Below the pieces are notes generated by a model. That model worked only from the letters and a program-made list of their open reading frames with translations. It was not told the origin of the DNA and did not search any database. This document shows positions 3,873 to 36,809 of a stretch of 38,183 nucleotides of DNA, in pieces (the first letter of the stretch is position 1; each line of letters opens with the position of its first letter). Made by a program: the position numbers and the translations under genes. The stretch covers positions 1-38,183 of the forward strand of contig JANYGI010000123.1 of assembly GCA_025362495.1 (NCBI GenBank). The letters are read 5' to 3'. This stretch comes from Byssovorax sp. GTDB taxonomy: Bacteria; Myxococcota_A; Polyangia; Polyangiales; Polyangiaceae.

Positions 3873-6800
3873 ATGAGTCGGAAGAACGTCGAAGACATCT
3901 ATCCGCTGTCGCCGATGCAGCAGGGCATGCTGTTCCACACGCTGTATGCCTCCGAAGGCGGCGTCTACGTGGTCCAGCGCGCCTTCACGCTGCGCGGCAG
4001 CGTCGATGTCGACGCGTTCGTACGCGCCTTCCAGGACGTGACCGATCGCCACCCGATCCTCCGCACCGCGTTCGTGTGGGAGCGGCGCGAGCAGCCGCTC
4101 CAGGTGGTGCGCGAGAAGGTCCGCCTGCCGGTGGAGCAGCACGATCTGCGCGGCGTCTCGCCGGCCGATCAGGCCGCCCGCCTCGTCTCGTTCCTCGACG
4201 CGGATCGCCGCCGCGGCTTCGATCTCGCGCGCGCGCCGCTGATGCGCCTCACCCTCTTTCGCCTCTCGGAGAGCGAGTACCGATCGATCTGGAGCTCGCA
4301 CCACATCCTCCTCGATGGCTGGTCGACTCCACCCCTCCTGAAAGAGGTCTTCACCCTCTATCAGGCCCACGCCACCGGAAAAGAGGCCCGGCTCGAGCGG
4401 GTGCGCCCCTATGGCGAGTACATTGGCTGGCTCCAGAAGCAGGACGTCAAGACGGTCGAGGCCTTCTGGCGCGAGCGCCTCCGCGGCTTCAGCGCGCCCA
4501 CGCCCTTCGGCGTCGATCACCCGTCCACGGGGCCGGCGAACGTCGTCGATCTCCGCGCGTCCCTCTCACCCGAGGTGTCGGCCGCGCTCCAGAGCACCGC
4601 GCGCCAGCACCAGCTCACGCTGAGCACGCTGATGATCGGCGCCTTCGGCGTCCTGCTCTCGCGCTACAGCGGCGAGGAAGACGTCCTGTTCGGCGCCACG
4701 GTGTCGGGGCGCTCTCTCCCGGTGCCCGGCATCGAGAAGATGATTGGCCTCTTCATCAACAGCCTCCCGACGCGGGTGCTGGTGGAGCCGTCGCGCCCGG
4801 TTATCGACTGGCTCCGCACCCTGCAATCCCAGCAGGCCGAGCGCCGCGACCACGAGCACAGCCACCTCGTCACCATCCAGGGACAGAGCGAGATCCCGCG
4901 CGGCACTCCGCTGTTCGAGAGCCTCGTCGTCTTCGAGAACTACCCGTTCGAAGAGTCGATGTTGCAGAGCCTCGGAGGGATCGAGGTCGTCGACGGCCAC
5001 ACCAGCGAGGAGTCGAATTTCCCCCTCACGCTCGTGGGCTCCTTCCGCGGCACCACCCTGTCTCTCCGCCTGAGCTACGACCGGAGCCGCTTCGACGACG
5101 CCGTCGCCGAGCGCATGCTCGGCCACATCGTCACGCTGCTCGAAGCCCTCGCGGGCGATCCCGCGCGGCTCGTCGGCGATCTCCCCATGATCGGCGCGGT
5201 CGAGGCCCGATCGCTCGTCGCCCGCAGCCACGGCAAGACCACCGCGTACCCGGACGCGGCCTTGATTCACCAGCTCTTCGAGGCCGCGGTCGACCGCGAT
5301 CCCGACGCGATCGCCGTGGTCTTCGAGGGCCAGGAGCTCTCGTATCGCGAGGTCGATCGCCGGTCGAACCAGCTCGCGCACGCTCTCCGCAAGCTGGGTG
5401 TCGGACCGGAGGTGATCGTGGGCGTGTGCCTCGATCGCTCGCTCGAGCTCCCGATCGCGCTCCATGCCGTGCTCAAGGCCGGCGGCGCGTACCTGCCTCT
5501 CGATCCCGAGTACCCGACCGAGCGCCTCGCCTTCATGCTGGCGGACGCGAAGACTCCCGTCGTCCTCACGCAAGCGCACCTCGAAGGCCTCCTCCCGTCC
5601 CACGCCGCCACCGTCCTCCGCCTCGACACCGGCTGGGACGAGATCGCGAAAGAGCCTGATTCCAGGCTCCCGCGCGGCGATCTCCGCCTCTCTTCCCTCG
5701 CCTACGTCATCTATACCTCGGGCTCGACCGGTCGCCCCAAGGGCGTGATGAACGAGCACGGCGGCATCCTCAACCGCCTCTCGTGGATGCAGGACGCCCA
5801 CCGCCTCGGCCCGGGCGATCGCGTCCTCCAGAAGACGCCGTTCAGCTTCGACGTCTCCGTCTGGGAGCTCTTCTGGCCGCTGATGTCCGGCGCGACGCTC
5901 GTCGTCGCCAGGCCCGACGGCCACAAGGATCCCCGGTATCTCGCCGCGACGATCGCCTCCGCCGGGATCACCACGCTGCACTTCGTCCCGTCGATGCTCA
6001 CGGCCTTCCTCGACGAGCTCGCGGGCGACACCCGGGCTCGACGCTGCGCCGCGCTCCAGCGGGTCTTCGCCAGCGGAGAGGCCCTGTTGCCCTCGATGGT
6101 CGACGCCTTCCACGCGCTCCTCCCGGGCGCGGCGCTCCACAACCTCTACGGCCCCACCGAGGCCGCGGTCGACGTGACGGCCTGGGAATCCATCGCGGGC
6201 TCATCCATCGTGCCAATCGGCAAGCCGATCGACAACGTCCAGATATACCTCCTCGATCCGCGCCGCGCGCTCGTCCCCGAGGGCGTCCGCGGCGAGCTCT
6301 ACATCGGTGGAGTCCAGGTCGCGCGTGGGTATCTCGATCGCCCCGAGCTCACGGCCGAGCGCTTCGTCGCCGATCCGTTCGGCGCCGCGGGCGATCGGCT
6401 CTACCGCACCGGCGACGTGGCCCGCTGGCTCCCGACAGGCGATATCGAGTACCTCGGCCGCGCCGACTTCCAGGTGAAGATCCGCGGCTTCCGCATCGAG
6501 CTCGGCGAGGTCGAGGCGGTCCTCGATCAGCACCCGGCGGTGCGCGAGGCCGTGGTCCTCGCCCGCGAGGACTCCCCGGGGAACAAGCGCCTCGTCGCCT
6601 ACCTGTGCCCCCGCGACGCCGCGCCGATGGAGTCGGATCTCCGCGCGTTCATCAAGGCCAGGCTCCCGGATTACATGGTCCCTTCGGCCTTCGTGATCCT
6701 CGAGGCCCTCCCTCTGACGGCGAGCGGCAAGATCGATCGCCGCGCCTTGCCCGCGCCCGAGAGCACATCGGGCTCGGCGCGCCTCCGCGTCGCGCCGCGC

Positions 6801-36809: not shown

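What the first reader, a model, noticed from the sequence alone, without database searches (positions are those of the whole stretch)
3873..36809. Assembly line with doubled specificities: Ser, then Phe-Phe, Thr-Thr, Asp-Asp, Ser-Ser
The nine pockets read by eye are DVWHFSLVDK, DAWTVAAICK twice, DFWNIGMVHK twice, DLTKVGHVGK twice and DVWHFSLVDK twice. After module 1 every substrate occurs as an adjacent identical pair. With E domains in modules 5, 8 and 9 the predicted chain is Ser-Phe-Phe-Thr-D-allo-Thr-Asp-Asp-D-Ser-D-Ser. I do not recognise a known peptide with this order. The regular pairing suggests the line grew by successive duplication of A or A-T units.
Basis: partly seen in the sequence, partly recalled or inferred. 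Interest (0 to 1): 0.8.

Follow-up and report, generated by a model that had tools for sequence, protein, structure and literature searches.

The report
Middle third of a 28-module peptide line

Summary
Two NRPS proteins (3873-21197, 21231-36809) carry nine modules; all nine pocket codes and the E domains in modules 5, 8 and 9 are as read.

The nine modules lack a TE, and a third NRPS protein starts at 36827 and is cut by the contig end. The first C domain groups with post-E (D-L) C domains, so an upstream protein ending in E is expected. E/C bookkeeping plus contig-end matches link C160+C9, C158 (window), C196 and C139 into one 28-module order.

A closed relative, G097, carries six proteins with the same module counts (5, 5, 4, 7, 4, 3). 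C types and T types agree at all 28 positions, substrates at 15 of 28 (shuffles 3.1; 0 of 200,000 reach 15). Its genes also lie on three loci, but split differently.

Recent duplication explains the pairs poorly. Three of the four (FF, TT, DD) sit at the same positions in G097 (the fourth is Thr-Ser there), yet A cores are mostly more alike within a genome than across: concerted evolution. The Ser pair is not sister (AU p 0.012).

The parts
3873..21197 (+). NRPS protein p1: C-A(Ser)-T-C-A(Phe)-T-C-A(Phe)-T-C-A(Thr)-T-C-A(Thr)-T-E; proposed residues 6-10 of 28
3894..5216 (+). first C domain of p1, groups with post-E (D-L) C domains, so probably not a line start
8469..13079 (+). Phe-Phe A domains (8469-9938 and 11625-13079), A cores 84% identical, sisters
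14772..19505 (+). Thr-Thr A domains (14772-16289 and 17979-19505), weakly supported sisters
19797..21149 (+). E domain of p1, followed by a tail with TPSDF
21231..36809 (+). NRPS protein p2: C-A(Asp)-T-C-A(Asp)-T-C-A(Ser)-T-E-C-A(Ser)-T-E; proposed residues 11-14 of 28
30801..32162 (+). E domain of p2 module 3
35388..36749 (+). E domain of p2 module 4, near the protein end
36827..38153 (+). start of a third NRPS protein (p3), D-L type C domain; continues off the contig, most likely as contig C196
38154..38183 (+). contig-end artefact: last 30 bases are the inverted copy of 38013-38042 (the first nine of them also fit C196 in line); the TAG at 38168-38170 that seems to end p3 lies in it
98..1468 (+). 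sigma-54 dependent response regulator beside the line; role not shown
1465..2829 (+). histidine kinase beside the line; role not shown

Best explanation
The window holds proteins 2 and 3 (plus the start of protein 4) of a six-protein, 28-module NRPS line. Order in this genome: starter protein on contigs C160+C9 (Gly, D-Ser, Ser, Asp, D-Thr) hands to p1 (Ser, Phe, Phe, Thr, D-Thr), p2 (Asp, Asp, D-Ser, D-Ser), p3/C196a (Ser, Asp, Asn, Pro, Val, Gly, Gly), C196b (Ser, Val, Val, D-Asn), and C139 (Ala, Asp, Val/Ile-like, TE). Chain hand-over between proteins relies on docking ends and on the match of E domains with D-L type C domains, not on gene order. A Cys-type TE releases the peptide, possibly as a lactone. 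The repeated residues are kept alike by copying of A cores between modules of the same specificity inside each genome. Shown by sequence: domains, codes, C/T types, docking motifs, co-linearity with G097. Inferred: the C158-C196 and C160-C9 joins in this genome, in vivo hand-over, acylation at the start, ring closure, all chemistry.
For: Bookkeeping of the 39 C/E hits in the genome: 6 E domains and 6 C domains in one post-E type clade; only the C9 and C196b E ends and the p1 and C139 heads lack adjacent partners. p3 and the C196 end share 404 bp at 97%, against 55-61% protein identity for the other D-L type C domains of the genome. The truncated A domains at the C160 and C9 ends both match C160's own Ser A domain best (for C9 narrowly, 187 against 181 bits). 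In G097, one closed 16.0 Mb contig: six proteins with 5/5/4/7/4/3 modules on three loci; D-type or starter C at the same 7 of 28 positions, GGDSI T domains at the same 6 of 28, substrates 15 of 28 equal, C-domain reciprocal best hits on the diagonal 8 of 10, among them p3 with the first C of the 7-module protein. TubC_N docking heads on both 4-module proteins after the 7-module one, and EEGEL tails on both 7-module proteins. TE motif GMCEG in both. In G097 p3' starts with an L-L type C although its neighbour p2' ends in E, so the 7-module protein should come between. A-core best match lies within the genome for 21 of 27 A domains, in G097 for 5, tie 1.
Against: The most modules on one contig are 11 (C196) and 9 plus a C domain (window); no contig joins the loci. 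The last 302 bp of C196 have only short weak matches elsewhere in the genome, and the p3/C196 overlap has 13 mismatches in 404 bp, so strain mixture or chimeric ends are in play. C139's NRPS is the only one on a 168 kb contig. Starter and D-L C domains are hard to tell apart: the C160 first C, which I call starter, gives much the same PDB ranking as p1 C1 (McyB first, CDA starter near the bottom) and also has mostly post-E nearest neighbours (13 of 20; its G097 partner 17 of 20). Only the trees separate them, and 5 of the 7 external members of the starter-like clade had 1.5 kb or less of upstream DNA to judge from. Only 9 of 28 C domains have the expected partner as top hit; T domains 2 of 28, with 0 of 7 reciprocal best hits on the diagonal; E domains 1 reciprocal best hit, on the diagonal. 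The C tree is poorly resolved. T type, E and D-L C type go together, so the pattern matches are not independent. In G097 p3' ends without E (module carries Gly), so its count is 5 E to 6 D-L. G097 shows at least five frame breaks in the line. No acyl ligase was noticed by eye beside the G097 starter gene. I placed the six G097 proteins in order knowing this genome's order.
Confidence: 0.8

Rival explanations
1. p1 and p2 start their own shorter line: the first C domain of p1 has been recruited as an acyl starter, and the product is a lipopeptide of 9 or more residues that ends elsewhere.
For: p1 is the first gene after a 1 kb gap and a regulator pair; in G097 no C domain is listed between p1' and 7.91 Mb on its upstream side. 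PDB ranking and nearest-neighbour labels do not separate the likely starter C of C160 from p1 C1.
Against: p1 C1 sits in a 6-row own clade that includes C domains following E in the same protein (support 99), while the C160 first C is in another clade with 99 and pairs with the G097 one (98). It leaves the C9 (G097: S) E end without an acceptor in both genomes.
Confidence: 0.1
2. C158 ends another line and C196 is a paralogous cluster with a recently copied C domain; the line is 9 modules plus an unknown remainder.
For: 97% not 100% identity over 404 bp; contig ends do not agree beyond it.
Against: G097 has a 7-module protein whose first C domain is reciprocal best hit of p3 and whose fifth C domain is that of C196a module 5. 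One more D-L C domain would be left without an E donor.
Confidence: 0.07
3. The pairs are recent tandem duplications of modules or A-T units.
For: Phe (100), Thr (94), Gly (96) and Val (99) pair members are sisters in the A tree. T domains of Asp (75%), Ser (79%) and Val (75%) mates are at or near their closest in the genome. C-domain AU tests do not reject sisterhood of the four pair mates tested (p 0.24-0.41).
Against: C domains of the Phe, Thr, Gly and Val mates are near background (53-60%), those of the Asp and Ser mates are of different types, and T of Phe (68%), Thr (49%) and Gly (53%) mates show no closeness. FF, TT and DD occupy the same positions in G097. Ser sisterhood rejected.
Confidence: 0.07

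Closest known systems
Peptin-family synthetases of Pseudomonas (syringopeptin, corpeptin; 19, 22 or 25 modules)
   Same: very long NRPS lines for one peptide (PMC10928948, PMC4554452, PMC3039948, passages seen)
   Different: those are three NRPSs (PMC10928948; an about 80 kb cluster in strain B301D, PMC4554452), without E domains and with two TE domains for Syp (PMC3039948); this one, as modelled, has 28 modules, six proteins, six E domains, one Cys-type TE and three loci
A-core recombination in NRPS evolution (PMC8097286; wollamide case PMC9205934; passages seen)
   Same: exchange targets the A core and mostly spares C, A-sub and T
   Different: here the exchange is read as acting between modules of equal specificity and keeping substrates the same, as concerted evolution
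The line in genome G097 (same family as this genome; size as Minicystis rosea DSM 24000, 16.04 Mbp in PMC8436480; identity inferred from size only)
   Same: six proteins, module counts, C and T types
   Different: 13 of 28 substrates differ or are unassigned; genes split differently; last E of protein 5 absent; frame breaks

Membership tests
modular type I NRPS | C-A-T modules with intact core motifs | tested here: met
modular type I NRPS | initiation and TE in the same cluster | tested here: not met
   no TE in the window and its first C is D-L type; likely starter C on C160, TE on C139
acyl-starter lipopeptide line | starter-type first C domain | tested here: inconclusive
   C160 and G097 S first C domains pair (98) and the C160 one lies in a separate clade (99) of N-terminal first C domains, but PDB ranking and neighbour labels do not separate it from D-L domains and the acyl function of that clade was not shown
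acyl-starter lipopeptide line | acyl ligase beside the starter gene | tested here: inconclusive
   long-chain acyl-CoA ligase at C160:47339-48964; none noticed by eye in G097
Peptin (syringopeptin) family | no E domains and tandem TE | tested here: not met
   six E domains, one TE; family features from PMC3039948 passage
product is a 28-residue peptide | product detected | not testable with these tools
   no chemistry data

The most novel reading that the evidence does not exclude
A 28-module bacterial line, longer than the 25-module peptins, conserved between two genera while its six genes have been regrouped over three loci in each, held together by docking and stereochemical matching, and with A cores homogenised within each genome so that substrate pairs persist.
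Probability: 0.76. Interest if true: 0.8.

Novelty: new variant of a known kind. Interest (0 to 1): 0.7.

Why it matters
Cluster-based genome mining would see three unrelated fragments here, none with both a start and a release domain, and would predict wrong short peptides. If the model is right, E/D-L bookkeeping plus comparison with a relative can reassemble split lines. The two genomes form a natural experiment: C and T types are the same over 28 positions while 13 substrates differ or are unassigned, and A cores appear to evolve in concert, which bears on how to swap substrates in engineered lines. The peptide itself would be unusually long for a bacterial NRPS product (compare 19-25 modules in PMC10928948, passages seen).

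Tried and rejected
Stand-alone C-domain gene at 36827-38170: rejected; the stop lies in an inverted contig-end copy.

Sigma-54 promoter upstream of p1: 1 match in the whole window with 2 mismatches, at 12050, fewer than the shuffles give (mean 6.8); no support.

MbtH dependence: 0 MbtH matches in the genome (the control rang in 2 of 14 genomes).

PDB comparison as a test of starter against D-L type: given up; it ranks p1 C1 and the C160 first C much alike.

Orthologues by C domain: among 59 searched genomes (this one included) the best outside hit is 50%, and among the 80 best loci kept from a capped scan of genome contigs the best is 55%. G097 was not among the 59 and came only with the A-core search of 108 family genomes, this one included. 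The TE marker in 183 genomes of the order: 61 of 183 have some TE match at E 0.001; outside this genome the best full-length match is G097 at 47%, the next outside G097 is 36%. G097 has further TE matches of 57% (partial), 40% and 39% at places where one search lists no C domain; not followed.

Docking ends: TPSDF tails and MSRxN-type heads are shared by several proteins and do not by themselves fix the order.

Papers: 10 of 10 searches used. No listing or passage that I saw showed a line of 26 or more modules or this peptide; the five papers listed for 26 to 30 modules were not opened. The library is open-access only, so absence is weak evidence.

Full report
OBSERVATION. The window is the whole of contig C158 of a 10.8 Mb, 240-contig genome. 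Residue names for the codes are recalled. The pairing is modestly unlikely by shuffling (2.7%) and rare elsewhere: identical codes in 1 of 65 adjacent module pairs of external loci, against 6 of 20 here.

THE NINE MODULES ARE NOT A WHOLE LINE. A third NRPS reading frame begins at 36827, 17 bases after the stop of p2. Its apparent stop lies in the last 30 bases of the contig, which are an inverted copy of 38013-38042. No TE was found in the window by the own-genome search. Among external C domains labelled by context, 16 of the 20 nearest to p1 C1 follow an E domain in the same or the preceding protein (this set was gathered with a D-L domain as bait). In a 203-row FastTree tree p1 C1 sits with p2 C1, p2 C4, p3, C139 C1 and C160 C3 in one own-genome clade (99). 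The first C of C160 is in another clade of nine N-terminal first C domains (99); five of the seven external members had 1.5 kb or less of upstream DNA. Two simpler tests do not separate the two kinds: in the PDB comparison both p1 C1 and the C160 first C rank McyB and PvdL highest and the CDA starter C near the bottom (23.6 and 28.2 bits), and the C160 first C also has 13 of 20 post-E neighbours. So the claim that p1 is not a start rests on the trees and on the bookkeeping below.

GENOME-WIDE BOOKKEEPING. The 39 C/E hits include 6 E domains and 6 C domains of the post-E clade (E and C were told apart with HMMs built from the window's own domains). Four are matched within proteins or between neighbours. 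The two free E ends are on C9 and C196b; the two free D-L heads are p1 and C139. C160, with a long-chain acyl-CoA ligase upstream, has the likely starter. C139 has the only TE at the end of a D-L headed multimodular protein. The pairing C9 to p1 and C196b to C139 gives one line with one start and one end; the other pairing gives a ring without start or end plus a short line.

CONTIG ENDS. p3 and the end of C196 share 404 bp with 13 differences; beyond it the C196 end (302 bp) has only two short weak matches elsewhere in the genome. C160 ends, and C9 begins, inside an A domain; both pieces match C160's own Ser A domain best (86% and 72%; for C9 by 187 against 181 bits). GC of the stretches read from the five contigs is 69.8-72.0%.

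THE CLOSED RELATIVE. An A-core search of 108 genomes of the family found G097, one contig of 16,040,666 bases, with two adjacent 64% Phe A domains. Reading its NRPS loci gives: at 11.082-11.101 Mb a 5-module protein Pro, Ser(E), Ser, Asp, Thr(E); at 3.296-3.353 Mb four proteins with 5, 4, 4 and 3 modules (unassigned DAWQYGLVQ, Phe, Phe, Thr, Thr(E); Asp, Asp, Thr(E), Ser(E); Thr, Val, Thr, Gly; unassigned DAWQFGLVQ, Asp, Gly, TE); at 0.946-0.969 Mb a 7-module protein. One more C domain at 7.91 Mb was not typed. The counts 5/5/4/7/4/3 equal those of this genome. Ordered the same way, D-type or starter C domains fall at the same 7 of 28 positions and GGDSI T domains at the same 6 of 28. Substrates agree at 15 of 28 (shuffles 3.1; 0 of 200,000 reach 15). 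One of these, C160/C9 module 3, is assigned from a truncated pocket. Ten C-domain reciprocal best hits were found, 8 on the diagonal; 9 of 28 C domains have the expected partner first. T domains do not show position: 2 of 28 expected partners first, 0 of 7 reciprocal best hits on the diagonal. E domains give one reciprocal best hit, on the diagonal.

The loci are divided differently. Here p1, p2, C196a and C196b go together (if C158 joins C196) and C139 lies apart; in G097 the C139 counterpart sits beside p1'-p3', and the 7-module protein lies apart. The starter protein is apart in both. In G097, p3' begins with an L-L type C domain although its neighbour p2' ends in E, so the distant 7-module protein, with a D-L head and a T end, should act between them. 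Both 7-module proteins end in EEGEL, and both following proteins begin with a TubC_N docking domain. Module 4 of p3' has kept the GGDSI T domain and a tail like those that follow E domains, but has no E domain and now carries Gly, which is achiral. Both TEs have GMCEG, a Cys nucleophile, as in the GXCXG motif of ObiF (PMC6668435, passages).

PAIRS. A-domain tree: Phe sisters 100, Thr 94, Gly 96, Val 99; Asp unresolved; Ser not sisters. Core-only trees: Ser sisterhood rejected (AU 0.012), Asp open (AU 0.42), Thr 90/87. In the two-genome tree Asp mates pair at 92 and Thr mates of this genome are unresolved. The Phe pair reaches 90-98% per 50-residue window in four windows in the middle of the A core. 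C domains of pair mates are near background; T domains are not close for Phe, Thr and Gly, but are at or near the closest for Asp, Ser and Val, and A-sub is close for Thr, Ser and Val. In the two-genome A-core tree, Phe cores group by genome (99 and 100) although both genomes have Phe at the same two positions; the G097 Ser cores of its first two Ser modules are 95% identical. Over all 27 complete A cores of this line, the best match is within the genome for 21, in G097 for 5, tie 1. Some Thr and Asp cores do not group by genome. I read this as repeated A-core copying between modules of one specificity, in line with A-core exchange described in PMC8097286 and PMC9205934 (passages seen). Asp modules of different loci also share C domains: p2.m2 with C139.m2 (100/98) and C196a.m2 with C9.m2 (98/98), which ties the loci to one history.

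LIMITS. No chemistry. G097 carries at least five frame breaks in the line, either sequencing errors or decay. That G097 is Minicystis rosea is inferred from size only (PMC8436480, passages; one search gives the lineage of that name). The claim of unusual length rests on passages in PMC10928948, PMC4554452 and PMC3039948 and on searches in an open-access library.

Noticed in passing
window 38154-38183 and C196:45759-46060: Both contig ends look chimeric: inverted copy of nearby sequence, and 302 bp with only short weak matches elsewhere in the genome.
   Followed up: partly
C139:80079-80876 (L158) and G097:C1:3296389-3297147 (L159): The TE has Cys in place of Ser (GMCEG) in both genomes.
   Followed up: partly
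G097:C1:3306683-3307018: E domain missing after a GGDSI T domain with the post-E type tail kept; module carries Gly. Looks like an E deletion made harmless by an achiral residue.
   Followed up: partly
G000:C140:16000-26000 (L018): Single-module C-A-T protein with a TE match, whose C domain groups with the C160 starter-like C.
   Followed up: no
window 98-2829: Sigma-54 response regulator and histidine kinase upstream of p1; the regulator is 43% identical to one 17 kb from the 7-module gene of G097.
   Followed up: partly
G097:C1:2672555-2673025: A further TE-like match (57% over 157 residues) in a 997 aa frame, with no C domain listed near.
   Followed up: no
whole genome G000: No MbtH-like protein found.
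   Followed up: yes
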